Of a DNA stretch of 64,000 nucleotides, positions 4,949-12,225 are shown one piece after another. A program made the position numbers and the translations under genes. The stretch covers positions 2,450,576 to 2,514,575 of the forward strand of contig OX639991.1 of NCBI GenBank assembly GCA_951828585.1. The letters are read 5' to 3'. Below the pieces are notes generated by a model. The model was not told the origin of the DNA. It did no database searches and saw only the letters and a program-made list of their open reading frames with translations. The stretch's first letter is position 1, and the number at the start of each line of letters is the position of its first letter. The stretch comes from Longimicrobiales bacterium (GTDB lineage Bacteria; Gemmatimonadota; Gemmatimonadetes; Longimicrobiales; Gaopeijiaceae).

Positions 4949-6169
4949 ATGGCCGGTCATCACATTCGTCTGCTCTGGCGCTACGATCCCATTCTCTACG
5001 CGCCGGCAAAGTACCGGAAGGCCTGCGCCTACCAGGCTTTCGTCCCCGAACCCCTCGCGGACCTGAACCTCGCGCTGGATGGGGCCACGGCCGGTGTCGT
5101 ATCGGACGCCGAGGGGGCGATACGGGAGCTGAACTCGCATCCGCCCGGCGCCCTCGCCCCACTGGCCCGGTTGCTGCTCCGAACCGAGTCAGTCTCCTCG
5201 TCCAGGATCGAGGGGATGGCCCTCGGCGCTCGTGCTCTGGCGCGCGCCGAATCACGTGCGGAGGCCGGCATGCGAGTGGGTCCCACGGCCCGTGAAGTGC
5301 TGGCCAACGTCGATGCCATGCAGGCCGCGATGGACGCAGCCACTGGCGATTGCCCGTTCACGGCCGCGGACATCACCGACATTCACCGGCGTGTGATGGC
5401 CCATGCGCCCAGCCGCCACATCGCCGGGGTGGTGCGCACCGTTCAGAACTGGATCGGGGGAAACGACTACAACCCCTGCGGCGCCGACTTCGTGCCCCCG
5501 CCGCCCGAACACGTTCCGCCGCTGCTGCAAGACCTCGTGGACGCGGTCAACCGCGATGACCTGCCGCCCCTCGTCCAGGCCGCCCTGGTTCACGCGCAGT
5601 TCGAGACCATTCATCCCTTTGAGGACGGGAACGGGCGGACCGGGCGCGCCCTGGTGCAGGTTGTGCTCCGGCGGCGCGGTGTAGCCCCGGGCTACGTGCC
5701 TCCGGTCAGCGTGATCCTGGCCGCCGACCGCCACGCGTACATCGCGGGCCTCGGGCAGTTCCGGTGCGGCGAAGCGGTCCGCTGGATCGCGGAGTTCGCC
5801 GCCGCCACCGCACGAGCAGCCACCCTCGCTGCCCGCTGCCTGGACGCCGTGCGTGACCTGCAAACGGAGTGGCAATGTCTCCTGGCGGCGGCCGCCAACC
5901 CCCGGGCCGACGCGGCCGCGTGGGCGGTCATCGAGGTGCTGCCCGCCCTCCCCGTGGTCTCGACGGCGAGCGCCATTTCCGCGACCGGGCGCGCCAAGTC
6001 CGCGGTACACGCGGCCGTGCGCCAGCTGGTCGAGTCAGGGGTGCTGCTTCCCCTGTCGACGTCCAGGCGCAACCGTCTTTGGGAGGCGTCGGGGCTGCTC
6101 GATCTGGTGGAGGGGCTGGAGGCGGGGAGGGCGCCATCCGGGAGCACGCTCTTCAAGCCGGCATCGTGA
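4949..6169 (+). CDS. Fic family AMPylase-like protein
   Basis: 406-residue Fic-domain protein, predicted to transfer AMP from ATP to hydroxyl side chains of a target protein. The core motif HPFEDGNGRTGR is at residues 222-233, with the catalytic His and phosphate-binding Gly/Asn/Arg all present. An inhibitory-helix motif of the S/TxxxE(G/N) type, SSSRIEG, is at 83-89, so this is a class II (self-inhibited) Fic protein with an N-terminal DUF4172-like region. The C-terminus (about 300-390) looks like a winged helix. The ATG is the only start that follows the operator. The 3' end overlaps the convergent PIN toxin gene by 17 bp. Target unknown. Confidence 0.92.
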   Translation: MAGHHIRLLWRYDPILYAPAKYRKACAYQAFVPEPLADLNLALDGATAGVVSDAEGAIRELNSHPPGALAPLARLLLRTESVSSSRIEGMALGARALARAESRAEAGMRVGPTAREVLANVDAMQAAMDAATGDCPFTAADITDIHRRVMAHAPSRHIAGVVRTVQNWIGGNDYNPCGADFVPPPPEHVPPLLQDLVDAVNRDDLPPLVQAALVHAQFETIHPFEDGNGRTGRALVQVVLRRRGVAPGYVPPVSVILAADRHAYIAGLGQFRCGEAVRWIAEFAAATARAATLAARCLDAVRDLQTEWQCLLAAAANPRADAAAWAVIEVLPALPVVSTASAISATGRAKSAVHAAVRQLVESGVLLPLSTSRRNRLWEASGLLDLVEGLEAGRAPSGSTLFKPAS

Positions 6170-6881: not shown

Positions 6882-7044
6882 TCATATCACCCGGTCCCCT
6901 CCTCGATGCTGCGCCAGCGCCCGGGACCGTGCATCCCTCCACTCGCATCGACGGCGCCGGCCGCTCGAGCGTTGGCCCTGGCGCGCGCGCACCCCCTACT
7001 ATGTGACGATTCGACCGCCAGTCCCCCAACCCGCGAGCATCCAC

Positions 7045-8104
7045 ATGCACAGACGTGATTTCGTGAAGACCGCCGCCGTGGGTGCGGCCGCCGGAGCCGT
7101 GCCCATCGTGGCCGCGCCGGGCACCGCAGCCGGCAACGCCACCCCCGCCATCCACACCCGCCCCACCCGCCCCCTCCTCGTCGCGGACGTGTCCTCGATC
7201 CGGTACCGGAACGGCGGCCCCGAGAGCGCGATCGAGCGCGCCTTTCGCGGCATCACCGAGGGCGAGGACATCCTGGACGCGTGCGTGGCCGGGGTGAACA
7301 TCCCCGAACTCGACCCCGAGGAGCGGGGCATCGGGTACGGCGGCCTTCCCAACGCCGACGGCGCGGTCCAGCTCGATTCGTGCCTCATGCACGGGCCGCG
7401 CAGGTGGGCGGGCGCGACCTCAACACGGCCGCCTCTCGCGAACTGTGGCTGGAATGGCGCCGCCGCGTCGATCCCGGCCACTGGCTCGACCCGGACGAGC
7501 GCCTGCGCGGCCGCGGGCGTCCCGGCGAGGACACGGACCCGGACGCGATCCGCCGCTTCCACGACGCCTCCCTCGCCGCCGGCCTCTCCATGGTCGACGA
7601 CGGCCTCATCGACCCCGACTCGTTCTGGGGCACCACCAGCTTGGAAGCCGTCTCCCCCGACGGCGACCTCTGCGGCGTCACCACCACCAGCGGACTCTCC
7701 TGGAAGATCCCGGGCAGGGCGGGGGACTCCCCGATCCTGGGCGCGGGCCAGTACGTCGACAACGATGTGGGTGCGGCAGGTTCGACGGGCCGCGGCGAGG
7801 CCAACCTCTACAACCTGAGCTGCTTCATGATCGTCGAGTTCATGCGCTAGCTAGGGGGATGTCCCCGAAGGACGCCGGCATGGCGGTCCTCGAGCGCGTC
7901 CGCGGCAACACGGTGGAGTCGCGACTCCTCAATTCACGCGGTCTGCCAGCCTTTGACCTGCGATTCTTCATCCTCAACAAGGCGGGCGACTACGCGGGCG
8001 TGGCCATGTATGGCGCGGCGGAATCGGCCTTCGCGGTGTGCGACGAGAACGGGGCCCGGGAAGAACCGCTGGAAGGGCTGCTGGAGGGGTCGCCGCGGGA
8101 CTGA
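7045..8104 (+). pseudogene. N4-(beta-N-acetylglucosaminyl)-L-asparaginase-like (decayed)
   Basis: Remnant of an Ntn-hydrolase of the glycosylasparaginase/isoaspartyl peptidase family with a Tat-type signal (HRRDFVKTAAVGAAAGA). The family core is recognisable in three consecutive frames. The first runs to about 7400 (ends DSCLMHGPRRWAGA). The second runs to a stop at 7848-7850 and includes GVTTTSGLSWKIPGR and DSPILGAGQYVDNDVGAAG. The third carries MSPKDAGMAVLERV to 8104. The first junction lacks roughly 50 residues that intact homologues have. The second looks like a 5-nt insertion (TAGCT) just after ATGCGC near 7848; removing it restores MRRGMSP. ATG 7045 is the natural start. Confidence 0.8.
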
Positions 8105-8273
8105 GCCCACCGTGGCAGCCCGCGGAAAGACCGGCCGCTCGCCTGTGTGCCCGCCGGCGGTGGGCGCCGGGTTGTGCGCCCCGGAAGACCGCCGCACGAT
8201 ACAGCCGTCTCCTGTCCAATGACGGGATGAAGCCGTATGGGTAACGACAAGACCACTTTACAACGGAGGATTC

Positions 8274-8840
8274 ATGCGCAAGTCGCGAGCGCGACCATTC
8301 CCGGTTCTGGCCCTTTGCGCCCTCCTCCTCGCGCCGCGGGCCGCCTTCGGCCAGGAAACGGTCCGCCGCGTGTCGCTTGCGGAGGCGCTGGAGGCGTTCG
8401 CCGAAAACAGCCTGGCGTTGAAGATCGCAAGATCCGAGGCCGCCGGTCTGGTCGGAGCCGCCTGTCAGTCGTGCGCCTACTACAATCCCGGGTTTCTGTT
8501 TGAACGCGACGACCTCGGTCACGATTCCGAGAGCGTCTGGGAACAGACCTGCCTTCTTCTCCAACAGGTGGAATGGTCGGCCCGCCCGGCCGCGGGGAAA
8601 AGGCCGCCACGCACGCGATCGGTGCGGGCGCCGCCCGTTTCCGGGCCGACTCGGTCGCTTTGGCCTTCGAGGTGCGGGACGCGTATGTGCAGGCCTGGCT
8701 CGCCGAAGAGGCGGAGTCGATCGTGCGGCGGACCACTTCCGTCATCCAATCGGTGGCGGAGGATGCGGAGATCCGCCTGGAGGAGGGCGACATTTCAGCC
8801 TTCGAGGCCCGGCGGCTGCGACTCGCGGGTGCAGGCCTAG
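8274..8840 (+). pseudogene. TolC-family outer membrane efflux protein, 5' fragment
   Basis: N-terminal part of a TolC/CusC-like outer-membrane channel: signal peptide, then SLAEALEAFAENSLALKIA, the usual first-helix signature. A frameshift near 8570-8600 moves the match to another frame (FEVRDAYVQAWLAEEAESI, then EEGDISAFEARRLRLA). Homology stops near 8830-8840 where IS66-derived sequence begins, so about two thirds of the gene is missing. The start follows GGAGGATTC. Upstream, 8162-8181 holds a small GGGCGC/GCGCCC hairpin that could be a terminator of the preceding gene. Confidence 0.72.
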
Positions 8841-9686
8841 CGGGCAGAGCCAGACGTCCTTGATGGGCTTGCCGTACTGCTTGGCGGTGTCGTAGCGTCC
8901 GCGTCCCTTGGTGGTGCCGACGCGGATCCAGCGGGAGGCCCTGTAGAGGCCGCCGGTGAAGCGGGGGACCTCGACGAAGGTCTCGACGAGGACGGGGGGG
9001 TGTTGTAGCGGCGGGTCCAGTCGCGGGGCAGGCGGCGGCGGACGAGGGCGAGGATGTGGGATTCGAGGTTGGGGATGCGGATCCAGGGCAGGATGAGGAA
9101 CCGGGGGTTGTCGACGATCAGCGGCAGGTTCTTCCTGCGCAGGGTGGGGGTCCATCCGATGAAGCGGTCGCGCGGCGCGAGCGCCGATGCGGCGGTGCTG
9201 AAGCCGAGCATGGCGAGCGGCCAGCCGTTACGGTCGTGGACGGCATAGCGCATCTGGGCGCCGACGAGAATCTTGTAGCCGAGGTAGTGGTGGTGGGCGA
9301 CGAACTCGTTCCACAGCCTGCCCGGTCGCGTCCCGCCGACTACGGTGCGGATCTCCAGCGGGCGGACCTCGTCGAGGGTCGTGGGCGGTTGGGAAGAGGG
9401 GCGGCTCGGTATCCTGTCCGAAGACGATGGGGCCGGGCCGCCTCTGTTTCCCCTTCGGGGGCGGCAGGACGATGAGGCCGTCCCCGTGCATGGCGAGCAT
9501 GGTGACGCGCGCCATCATGTCCTTGAGCCCGCCGTCGGGCTTGAGCCAGCCGATGCGCCGGCAGAACTCCTTCGACAGGGCGTGGCGGTTGAGCGCGGGC
9601 GGCCCGGCGATCAGCCTACGCAGCAACGCCATCTCCCCTTCGGTGAAGTCGCGCCCGTGGTAGCGGCACTCGATGCGCTCGCTCAT
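8840..9686 (-). pseudogene. DUF4338 / DruA-like protein coupled to IS66 transposase (frameshifted)
   Basis: Begins at ATG 9686, overlapping the TnpC stop (ATGA). Family landmarks: MARVTMLAMHGDGL early, then GWPLAMLGFSTAA, RFLILPWIRIPNL, SHILALVRRRLP and ETFVEVPRFTGGLYRASRWI, which are typical of DUF4338, the domain of DruA from the Druantia phage-defence system. Two frameshifts are visible, near 9395 and near 9000 (a C-run). The reading continues to KDVWLCPL at about 8845 and then enters tolC, so the C-terminus is lost. The function of DUF4338 inside IS elements is unknown; a role in transposition is inference from the coupling. Confidence 0.72.
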
Positions 9687-11687
9687 GCGGGCGCCGTCAT
9701 CTCGCGCCTGCGTCCGGCGTCCATCGACCACGGCAGCCAGGGCGACAGGTCGTCCGGCGGTCGGCCGCCGCCCTCGGCGCACGCCGCCAGCCAGTCGGCG
9801 AGCCAGCGCGGCACGTCGAGGCCGTTCAGCCTCAGGGTGCCGGTCACCGAGTACATGAGCGCGGTGAAGCGGGCGCCGGACTCGCTGTCGGAGCCGAACG
9901 ACAGGCGCCGTCCGATGGCCGGGCCGCGCAGCAGCCGCTCGGCGAGATTGTTGTCGAGCGGCACGCGGGGCCGGTCGAGGAAGACGCTCAGCCCCTCGCG
10001 GTGGTTGAGGAGCGAGCGCAGCGGCTTGCCCTCCCTCGCCTCCGGCGGCAGGCGGGCGAGTTGGCCCTCGGCGGCCGCGAACATGTCGCCGAGCGCCTCG
10101 CTCAGCGCTCCGTGCGCCGCGTCGAACGCCGGCGTCTGGCGGTCGAGGCCGGGGTCGTGGCCGGCCAGCCGCGCCTTGTTCAGGCGGTAGACCGTCGCGA
10201 TCCGTCCGAGCCACTCCCAGCGCCAGCCGGCCAGATCGACTTGTACGGCCGCGCACCGGATGAAATCCCTGCGTATGTGCGCCCAGCAGAACGACAGGGT
10301 CACCCTGCCCCCGAGGAGACGCGCCAGCTTCTTGTAGGCGCTGTAGCGGTCGCACACGAGGACCGTCGGACACATCGCCCCGTCGAAGAGCTTCATGGCC
10401 GCCTCGGCGCTCCTCGACGGATCGACGTGGAAGTAGACCGCGCTGCGGCCGACCGAGGTCCACAGCCACGCGTACCCCGATCCGTCCCCCTCGCGCGACG
10501 CACGCACCCGCCAGCTGGTCTCGTCGGCGTGGCGCGGCGACGCGCCGTTCTGGTGCGCGAGGATCGCCGCGCCCACCGGCTCGAACAGCGGTCGGAAGCG
10601 GTGCACGCTGTCCGCCGGCGTCCCCGGCGAGACCGGCAGGCCCTGGTCGGACAGCCACGAGGAGACCCGGTGCAGCGGGCGCAGGCACGCATAGCGCTCG
10701 AACAGGAAGCGCGACCAGACGCTCGTCCCGTACGGCGTGCGAGCGAACAGCCGGGGCACCGGGGGCGCCGTCGCCTCGGCGGGCGACGACACGCACCCGC
10801 ATGTCCGCCGCCAGCGCGGGCGCCGGATCACGCGCCGGTGCGCACTGACCTCGATCTCGACGAGCGCGGACTCCTCGGCGCCGTTGGCCGCGTACGGGCT
10901 CCTGCAGCCCCGGCACACCCGCGCACCGGAGGGCGGGTTGTGCTCCTCGGCGCGTTCCTCAAGCCCCGGGCGCTCCGTGCGGCCATGGCCGGGCGCGCCG
11001 GGCTGTCGGCCCCGCCGCCGCCCCGAACGCGGCCGCTCCCGCCTCTCGCACGCGCCGCGGGACTTCCCCTTGGGCAGCCCCGATCGCGACGCGCGAAGCT
11101 TCGCCAACTGGCCTTCGAGGCGCTCGATCCGCCGCCGCGCCGCCCGCACCCTCTTGCCGAGCCGGGCCTTCTCCCGCGTCAGAGATCCGATCGTCGCCTT
11201 CTGCCGCCGCGACCGGCGCAGGGCCTTGCTCAACTGCCCACGCAGCGCCGGGATGACCGCGTCCGCCTCGATGCGGTCCCTGTGAAGGTTCCGCACCTCG
11301 GCCGCGCGGGCATCGAGCGCCTTCTCCAGCGCCCGACCCTTCTTGCGAAGCCGCGCCACCTCCATTCGAAGCGCCATCACCGTGCTGCGCTTCCCCGCGT
11401 CCACGCCGGTCTCCCGAAGCAGAGCGAGCAGACGCTCCACCTCGCGCTGCAACGCCAAGGCGTCCCGCGCCGCCCGGCGGGCCTCCCGCGTCTCCGCGAC
11501 GACCTTCCTCAGCCTCCAGCGCGACGCCTCCCACCGCCACCTCCGCCCGATCGCGCTCCCGCTCGTACAGCCAACGCCAGTCCGGAGGCTCCGCCGCCTC
11601 GGAACCGGACACCGGCCAAAGCTCCTCCGGCCCCTCGGCCAGCGCCACGCCCGCATGTCCGTTTGTGTCCCGTATCGCGATGCCCAC
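9683..11687 (-). pseudogene. IS66 family transposase (TnpC), 5' frameshift
   Basis: IS66 DDE transposase. The C-terminal two thirds are intact in one frame: a coiled-coil basic region, a CRGC/CGC zinc-binding part, HADETSWRV, DRYSAYKKL, CWAHIRRDF, NNLAERLLRGPAIGR and a closing RLNGLDVPRWLADWL. The likely native start is ATG 11687 (MGIAIRDTNGHAG, then PPDWRWLYERERDRAE). That segment is in a different frame, so a shift occurs near 11560. An alternative uninterrupted frame from 11740 exists but its first 70 residues look non-native. The stop overlaps the DUF4338 start. Confidence 0.78.
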
Positions 11688-11765
11688 GACGATACTACAT
11701 TCCGGATCGCGTTACCAGTCCCCCCCAAATCAATCCGCACGACCGTTCCACGGCTAGGCCGAACA

Positions 11766-12225
11766 GTTACCTGTGCACGGTGTCGACGCGCACGAAGCCC
11801 GGACGGCCCTCCGGCCGGGGCCTGCGCCGCTAGCCGATCGGCGAAGGCGGGCCCCGCGTCGTCCGGAACGTCGTCCGGGCACGCCGGTACGTCCGGCGGT
11901 TCCGCAGGTTGTAGATGTGGCCGTTCGAGATCCCGGCCAGGAGCTGGAAACGCGAGTCATCGAAGACATGGTACATGCGCCACAGGATCCTCTTCGTCGC
12001 CGGTCCCGAGAGCTGGCCGAAGGCCTCGTCAACCTCGGCCAGCAGTATCGCGTCGGCGGTCGTGTAGACGGTGGCGAAGGGCCGCGCAGGAGGCCGCAGC
12101 CGGTGGTCGCGGATGCGCGGCCCGGTGCGGCGCTGCTGCCTGATCAGGCGGGTCAGCTGGGCGTCCGAGTAGCCGGTGACCTTGGCGAGGTACTTCGTGA
12201 CCAGGCCCTTCCCTTTTCGGCATGA
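11766..12225 (-). pseudogene. Integrase-core transposase, N-terminal fragment
   Basis: Fragment of an HTH/integrase-core transposase: GLVTKYLAKVTGYSDAQLTRLIRQQRRTG, then GPATKRILWRMYHVF and YNLRNRRTYRRARTTFR, ending RPEGRPGFVRVDTVH. An in-frame TAG lies near 11832. The sequence stops at 11766-11772 exactly where the IS66 right end begins, so the catalytic domain is missing. The 5' end is also lost near 12225. Confidence 0.7.

What the first reader, a model, noticed from the sequence alone, without database searches (positions are those of the whole stretch)
8840..11687. DUF4338 (DruA-like) gene translationally coupled to an IS66 transposase
The TnpC stop and DUF4338 start overlap as ATGA. DUF4338 defines DruA of the Druantia defence system; finding it as an IS66 passenger or accessory gene suggests that this defence component came from, or still serves, transposons.
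Basis: partly seen in the sequence, partly recalled or inferred. Interest (0 to 1): 0.55.

Follow-up and report, generated by a model that had tools for sequence, protein, structure and literature searches.

The report
Transposon carrying a Mom-like modification gene
A jumping gene (IS66 type) carries a second gene, read together with its transposase, whose product looks like the phage Mu enzyme that chemically disguises DNA; the copy in this window is broken, but intact copies sit in other bacteria.

Summary
On the minus strand an IS66 transposase gene (tnpC) overlaps a DUF4338 gene by ATGA (9686-9683). Here tnpC has lost its start codon and some codons, DUF4338 has two frameshifts, and its last 10 codons and the right inverted repeat are gone.

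The same pair lies between IS66 inverted repeats elsewhere. Of 36 related loci that hold the DUF4338 start, 28 keep the 4-nt overlap; two complete elements have 8-bp duplications. DUF4338 also precedes or is fused to ISKra4, IS4, ISAs1 and IS1634 transposases.

'DruA-like defence gene' is a poor reading. Transposon-borne DUF4338 resembles phage Mu Mom, a GNAT-fold DNA-modifying enzyme, about as strongly as Druantia DruA. Its model's best match among 999 aligned PDB chains is Mom (Z 14.6), and it keeps the serine whose mutation inactivates Mom. DruA lacks that serine and arginine and forms a separate clade.

Best explanation: a transposon-encoded, Mom-like base-modification enzyme with an extra N-terminal domain. 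Activity is untested.

The parts
11734..11770 (-). left end of the IS66 element with its inverted repeat (GTAACTGTTCGGCC... on the minus strand); outer end at 11770
   Evidence: the same GTAAC(C/T)GTTCGG start as L047, L061, L043, L032; the partner repeat is missing here
9683..11740 (-). open frame that holds tnpC (IS66 DDE transposase); its N-terminal part is out of the native frame
   Evidence: NF033517 E 6.9e-77
11535..11711 (-). native N-terminal frame of tnpC (residues 1-59 of L061 TnpC), start codon lost, then frameshift and missing codons
9698..11569 (-). tnpC residues 75-762 as aligned to L061 (73% identity)
9683..9686 (-). ATGA overlap of tnpC stop and DUF4338 start
9390..9686 (-). 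DUF4338 piece 1: N-terminal domain, residues 1-99 of L030
8999..9388 (-). DUF4338 piece 2: GNAT core, residues 100-229, with HYLG, NPRF and NLESH motifs; frame changed
8838..8996 (-). DUF4338 piece 3: GNAT C-terminal part, residues 231-283, ETFVE and GLYRASRW motifs; last 10 residues missing
8837..8838 (.). break point: element truncated here, right inverted repeat absent; 8274-8837 is an efflux-like gene fragment (by eye) with a paralogue in the same genome
11771..12213 (-). flanking repeat-family gene (integrase/transposase-like by eye), interrupted at the element's left end; about 91% identical to three other copies tested

Best explanation
The gene after tnpC encodes a GNAT-fold, Mom-like nucleic-acid modification enzyme with an N-terminal domain of about 90 residues that is probably a winged helix. 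It is a standard second gene of one IS66 lineage, translated through a stop-start overlap so that it is made together with the transposase. Most likely the N-terminal domain brings it to DNA of the element (or to DNA the transposase handles) and the GNAT domain puts a small acyl-type group on a base, as Mom does on adenine. The mark would protect moving transposon DNA from host restriction or tune transposition.

Shown: the gene is inside the element, overlaps tnpC, is under purifying selection, has a GNAT fold model with Mom as best structural match, and keeps the Mom serine and the HY, R, Y, G and A positions. Inferred: that it modifies DNA, which base, the role of the N-terminal domain, and the benefit. 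The window copy itself is dead.
For: Element: left and right inverted repeats pair at 20/25 or better in 9 of 13 loci tested and in contigs L039, L041 and L045. L037 and L043 have 8-bp target duplications; L031 and L032 have 6-bp repeats. The outer end of the right repeat lies 34-120 bp after the last DUF4338 codon in the loci where I found it.

Coupling: 28 of 36.

Selection: DUF4338 dN/dS median 0.28 over 78 pairs of 13 genes.

Mom relation: profile-profile IS-borne DUF4338 (A2, 23 sequences) against phage Mom (A3, 11 sequences) E 1.9e-11; three ordinary GNATs of the window's genome give A2 E 0.072 to 0.3. Pfam Mom matches 13 of 23 A2 members at E<=1, best 4.1e-4. A Mom search of 249 genomes gave 7 places, 3 of them (all under the cut-off) DUF4338 places already found with the DruA model. 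PHROG 'Mom-like' matches L030 (0.0019) and 3 of 3 phage DUF4338-like proteins (4.5e-3 to 7.9e-7).

Fold: model pLDDT 87.8; of 999 chains aligned, 8bv8 (Mu Mom, 'inactive mutant S124A') ranks first with Z 14.6, 170 residues; the next is 13.1.

Residues: Mom S124 is S or T in 23 of 23 IS-borne and 17 of 17 phage DUF4338 sequences; H58, Y59, R111, G156, Y159, A161 and G168 are identical in all 40.
Against: No activity is shown. The DUF4338 hits to Pfam Mom whose bits I saw (18.6; 19.9 to 21.7) stay under its cut-off of 27.1, and L030, L032, L043 and L051 scanned singly showed no Mom match up to E 10, so this is not a Mom family member by that test. With IS66-type sequences alone (A1) the Mom comparison is weaker (E 1.9e-4; A1 against ordinary GNATs 0.024). 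Mom against those ordinary GNATs gives 0.0034. Mom's N163 is glycine in L030 and in 19 of 20 IS66-type rows. Mom's D149 is D, E or Q in IS-borne proteins and not kept in phage ones, and Mom's E108 is not kept. In Foldseek's own ranking the listed top 50 are other acetyl- or acyltransferases and Mom is not among them. The HY match was favoured by how I cropped the rows.
Confidence: 0.5

Rival explanations
1. The GNAT acetylates a protein, most likely the transposase or a host factor, and so controls how often the element moves.
For: GNAT fold; coupling to tnpC and fusion to IS4 and ISAs1 transposases put it next to the transposase.
Against: Sequence similarity to the three ordinary GNATs tested is not significant (E 0.07 or worse for A2), while it is strong to a DNA-modifying GNAT.
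Confidence: 0.2
2. The protein no longer does chemistry: the N-terminal domain and the GNAT shell bind DNA or TnpC and help assemble the transposition complex or choose targets.
For: It recurs as a fused domain upstream of the transposase in IS4 and ISAs1 elements, as expected of a structural or targeting subunit.
Against: Mom active-site positions, including S124, are kept in 23 of 23 IS-borne proteins, and dN/dS is 0.28, though selection alone does not tell catalysis from structure.
Confidence: 0.2
3. It is a Druantia-type defence gene carried as cargo.
For: The Pfam family is named after DruA, and the profile match A2 to DruA is strong (E 2.2e-11).
Against: L031, L032, L037 and L043 hold only tnpC and DUF4338; the PADLOC DruA score is 16.8 bits; DruA is a separate clade without the Mom-type arginine and serine.
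Confidence: 0.05
4. GNAT toxin that addicts the host to the element.
For: GNAT toxins exist in toxin-antitoxin pairs (recalled).
Against: No room for a third gene that could be an antitoxin in the four elements above; no significant similarity to the ordinary GNATs tested.
Confidence: 0.05

Closest known systems
Phage Mu Mom (Pfam PF25680; PDB 8bv8) and Mom-like phage enzymes
   Same: GNAT fold, best structural match (Z 14.6); S124, H58-Y59, R111, Y159, G156, A161, G168 positions kept; profile E 1.9e-11
   Different: Has an extra N-terminal domain, is encoded beside or fused to transposases, falls under the Pfam Mom cut-off, and in IS66-type copies mostly lacks N163
Druantia DruA (Pfam PF14236, formerly DUF4338)
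   Same: Same Pfam family over cut-off and strong profile match
   Different: DruA is a separate clade on a branch of 3.18, matches the whole 297-position Pfam model where the IS-borne ones mostly match about 40-230, and lacks the Mom-type HY pair, arginine and serine
IS66 insertion sequences
   Same: IS66 transposase, GTAA...TTAC inverted repeats, 8-bp duplications at two loci
   Different: In L031, L032, L037 and L043 no room for tnpA or tnpB between repeat and tnpC; a DUF4338 gene instead after tnpC. In another IS66 branch DUF4338 lies between tnpB and tnpC (L127)
DUF4338 as N-terminal domain of DndF (PMC10853773, passage seen)
   Different: It concerns DNA phosphorothioate systems; the one passage seen names neither transposons nor Mom for this domain

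Membership tests
IS66 insertion sequence | IS66 DDE transposase | tested here: met
   NF033517 E 6.9e-77, 259 bits against cut-off 180
IS66 insertion sequence | terminal inverted repeats beginning GTAA | tested here: met
   left end in the window; pairs of 20/25 or better in 9 of 13 relatives; the window's right repeat is lost
IS66 insertion sequence | 8-bp target-site duplication | tested here: inconclusive
   of the 9 paired loci: 8 bp at L037 and L043, 6 bp at L031 and L032, none seen at L033, L049, L050 and L059, left flank off the contig at L061; cannot be seen in the window
IS66 insertion sequence | tnpA and tnpB upstream of tnpC (three-gene members) | tested here: not met
   in L031, L032, L037 and L043 the tnpC frame begins 36-154 bp after the left end; a one-gene IS66 subgroup (ISBst12 type) is recalled
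Druantia | DruE helicase and other Druantia genes beside DruA | tested here: not met
   only tnpC and DUF4338 between the repeats of L031, L032, L037 and L043
Druantia | DruA recognised by defence-system models | tested here: not met
   PADLOC DruA 16.8 bits for L030 (E 7e-4, part of the model) against 362 and 476 for L017 and L018
Pfam PF14236 (DruA/DUF4338) | score over curated cut-off | tested here: met
   93.6 bits window core; 134.2 bits L030
Mom family (PF25680) | score over curated cut-off | tested here: not met
   13 of 23 members match at E<=1, best 4.1e-4, bits not shown; bits seen for DUF4338 hits 18.6 and 19.9-21.7, cut-off 27.1
Mom family (PF25680) | GNAT fold most like Mom and catalytic serine | tested here: met
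   8bv8 Z 14.6 rank 1 of 999 aligned; S124 equivalent S or T in 40 of 40
Mom family (PF25680) | modifies adenine in DNA | not testable with these tools
   needs nucleoside mass spectrometry
GNAT superfamily | GNAT fold | tested here: met
   136 PDB chains at E<=0.001, the 50 listed being acetyl- or acyltransferases; 768 of 999 chains with Z>=8

The most novel reading that the evidence does not exclude
Transposon-borne DUF4338 is a family of Mom-like DNA hypermodification enzymes that several unrelated insertion-sequence families (IS66 in two arrangements, ISKra4, IS4, ISAs1, IS1634) have each joined to their transposase. Transposons would thus chemically mark DNA as they move. Druantia's DruA would be a defence-side relative of this enzyme whose Mom-type active site has been lost or rebuilt.
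Probability: 0.4. Interest if true: 0.8.

Novelty: new variant of a known kind. Interest (0 to 1): 0.62.

Why it matters
If true, simple insertion sequences carry their own DNA-modification chemistry; the passage I saw on Mom enzymes (PMC7824862) describes them from phage and bacterial genomes, not from insertion sequences. That would give a direct test of why IS66 elements with this gene occur in three bacterial phyla, and would replace the misleading label 'Druantia protein' on many transposon genes. It also gives a concrete lead on the chemistry that DruA may share, have changed or have lost.

Tried and rejected
Chance junction: rejected by 28 of 36 conserved overlaps and the complete elements.

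Druantia origin within IS66: not supported; DruA falls outside the 57-row group (SH-aLRT 87; the order of phage rows, DruA and the 57 is unresolved, and the program flagged long branches).

Direct DruA-Mom link: profile comparison E 0.11, not significant.

First structure model with 20 close sequences was poor (pLDDT 57.2); no fold search was made with it. Foldseek's own listed top 50 in PDB do not include Mom; the viral library's rows are mostly unnamed proteins, several annotated endonuclease-like or acetyltransferase.

Solved structures by sequence: nothing for A2 or A4 below E 0.2.

Plasmids and phages: only two plasmid records of one organism with the IS66-type and ISKra4-type queries, none in phage records with the ISKra4-type query.

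Selection on TnpC for comparison: my ungapped codon comparison gave values over 1 for pairs with indels, so I do not use it.

Papers: DUF4338 occurs in 3 held papers (passages of all three seen); PF14236 in 2 (one plainly unrelated); Druantia with acetyltransferase and GNAT in none; Druantia, DruA and transposase in 9 (listing; passages of one); Druantia since 2023 in 38, 15 listed (passages of two, no word on GNAT, acetyltransferase or transposons); IS66 family with passenger genes and tnpC in none; IS66 with insertion sequence, acetyltransferase and passenger gene in 2 (listing only). Mom was searched (passages of two papers seen). So 'not reported before' holds only for these searches of this library; the other listed papers were not opened. 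The Mom mechanism paper I tried to open is not held.
Full report
What is in the window. On the minus strand an IS66 element starts with its left end at 11770 (GTAACTGTTCGG...). The DNA outside, from 11771, belongs to a gene with at least 16 further partial matches in the same genome (83-91% identity; three copies aligned). tnpC follows and ends at 9683; its stop overlaps the ATG of the next gene as ATGA. That gene is DUF4338 (Pfam PF14236, now named DruA). The element breaks off at 8838, where an efflux-like gene fragment takes over; a second copy of that fragment elsewhere in the genome aligns exactly up to 8837. The genome is one contig of 4.47 Mb, and no second copy of the element was found in it.

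The copy is a relic. Against relatives L047 and L061 tnpC has lost its ATG and has a frameshift with missing codons near 11,550. DUF4338 matches L030 in three pieces in two frames and lacks the last 10 residues and the right repeat. The rest of TnpC is open and scores well as IS66.

The pair is general. A scan of one genome per species with the intact DUF4338 of a same-genus genome (L020) gave 47 loci, with record titles naming Gemmatimonadota, Acidobacteria or Acidobacteriota, Alpha- and Gammaproteobacteria among others. Most are metagenome bins, where small contigs can be misplaced, but L043 lies in a 5.1-Mb chromosome titled Terriglobia, L064 (a degraded copy) in a 3.4-Mb chromosome titled Alphaproteobacteria, and the window in its own 4.47-Mb contig. 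In 36 of the 47 the DUF4338 5' end is matched. Of these, 28 have exactly the 4-nt overlap (ATGA or GTGA), 3 have a 4-nt gap, 1 has a broken tnpC frame, and 4 show no TnpC C-terminus. The right repeat (...CGAACGCTTAC and variants) follows the DUF4338 stop closely. Of 13 loci tested, 9 have left and right repeats matching at 20 or more of 25 bases; L037 and L043 are flanked by 8-bp duplications, L031 and L032 by 6-bp ones, L033, L049, L050 and L059 by none that I saw. The four elements with duplications are 3.07 to 3.35 kb long. In three short contigs the paired repeats lie at or within a base of the contig ends (L039, L041, L045).

Census. In 38 genomes chosen because they carry such loci, 42 IS66 transposase matches are nearly full length and 21 are followed by DUF4338 at the expected distance. 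The split follows the transposase subfamily: of the 21 near-full matches with E between 8.8e-60 and 1.1e-49, a band I chose after seeing the table, 20 are followed by DUF4338, and the 21st lies 422 bases from a contig end. The set of genomes is biased by its choice. In wider draws DUF4338 of any kind is rarer: 17 of 298 genomes of the window's phylum, 27 of 297 of the phylum of G316, 17 of 398 of the phylum of G317.

Other transposons. DUF4338 lies between tnpB and tnpC in another IS66 branch (L127: TnpB_IS66, DUF4338, DDE_Tnp_IS66). By eye or tblastn L122, L123, L124 and L175 look alike, while L110, L112, L125, L132 and L177 show at least an IS66 transposase after DUF4338. It sits directly before ISKra4 transposases (L019, L136; over cut-off) and an IS1634 transposase (L114; over cut-off), and is fused in front of IS4 (L021, L119) and ISAs1 (L078) transposases (over cut-off). 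IS701-like (L115) and IS1182-like (L109) neighbours score below cut-off.

What the protein is. A published paper already calls DUF4338 a GNAT domain (PMC10853773, passage seen). Here the IS-borne family (alignment A2, 23 sequences) matches phage Mom enzymes (A3, 11 sequences) with E 1.9e-11 and Druantia DruA (A4, 11 sequences) with E 2.2e-11. DruA and Mom do not match each other (E 0.11). Three ordinary GNATs of the window's genome match none of the three better than 0.0034 (Mom), 0.072 (A2) and 0.36 (A4). Phage-borne DUF4338-like proteins, found in viral contigs, match A2 (7e-37), DruA (2e-14) and Mom (1.7e-11) but not ordinary GNATs (0.13). The Pfam Mom model finds 13 of 23 A2 members at E<=1, and 3 of its 7 places in 249 genomes are DUF4338 places. 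The DUF4338 hits whose bits I saw do not pass Pfam's Mom cut-off, so I call it Mom-like, not Mom.

Structure. With 35 sequences the model of L030 DUF4338 reaches pLDDT 87.8. Among 999 chains aligned by VIA-align 2, the crystal structure of Mu Mom 'inactive mutant S124A' (8bv8) is first: Z 14.6, rmsd 3.7, 170 residues; the next row is 13.1. The chains were those that Foldseek ranked highest, and Foldseek's own listed top 50 are other acetyl- or acyltransferases. Residues 1-100 were barely tested; that they form a winged helix is my reading of the helix-strand order.

Active site. In a joint alignment Mom S124 falls on L030 S209: S or T in 23 of 23 IS-borne and 17 of 17 phage sequences. H58, Y59, R111, G156, Y159, A161 and G168 are the same in all 40; the HY match was helped by my cropping. 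Against: N163 is G in L030, D149 varies and E108 is not kept. The window relic still reads HHHYLGY, NPRF, NLESH, ETFVE and GLYRASRW. In DruA the profile alignments put valine at the arginine and C, G or K, never serine, at S124; the pair HY occurs anywhere in only 1 of 11, though a few rows keep a histidine (LHW) near that place.

Evolution. In a tree of 80 rows (quick search) the IS66-tnpC type is one clade (16 of 16, support 99), DruA is one clade (10 of 10) on a branch of 3.18 outside the 57 transposon-borne or solitary rows, and Mom is the outgroup. So the IS66 gene is not the parent of Druantia's DruA on this evidence; which of the groups came first is open. DUF4338 is under purifying selection (dN/dS median 0.28, 78 pairs).

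Mechanism. The best-supported account is a transposon-encoded Mom-like modifying enzyme made with the transposase. Shown: anatomy, coupling, spread, selection, fold, residues. Inferred: DNA as substrate, the chemistry, and the benefit (protection of moving DNA or control of transposition). Protein acetylation and a purely structural role remain possible.

Noticed in passing
L067, L068, L069 (around 5,318-5,864): Three genomes share about 5 kb of 98.7-99.96% identical DNA (in one or two blocks) with a DUF4338 relic, but right after the same reading-frame stretch (...LSRRYISVP) each continues with a different leucine-rich-repeat sequence: possible tail switching of LRR genes.
   Followed up: partly
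window 11771-12213: Fragment of a repeat-family gene with at least 16 further partial matches (83-91% identity) in the same genome; the IS66 element ends exactly at its break.
   Followed up: partly
L179-L181, L185-L223: Viral contigs carry stand-alone DUF4338-like, Mom-like proteins, in L179 near a DNA-methylase-like gene (by eye).
   Followed up: partly
L224-L232: Viral contigs carry proteins 35-74% identical to a Druantia-type DruA.
   Followed up: no
window 7003-8110 and 8274-8840: Two further genes beside the element look frameshifted or truncated, so this stretch is either decaying or has assembly indels (by eye).
   Followed up: no
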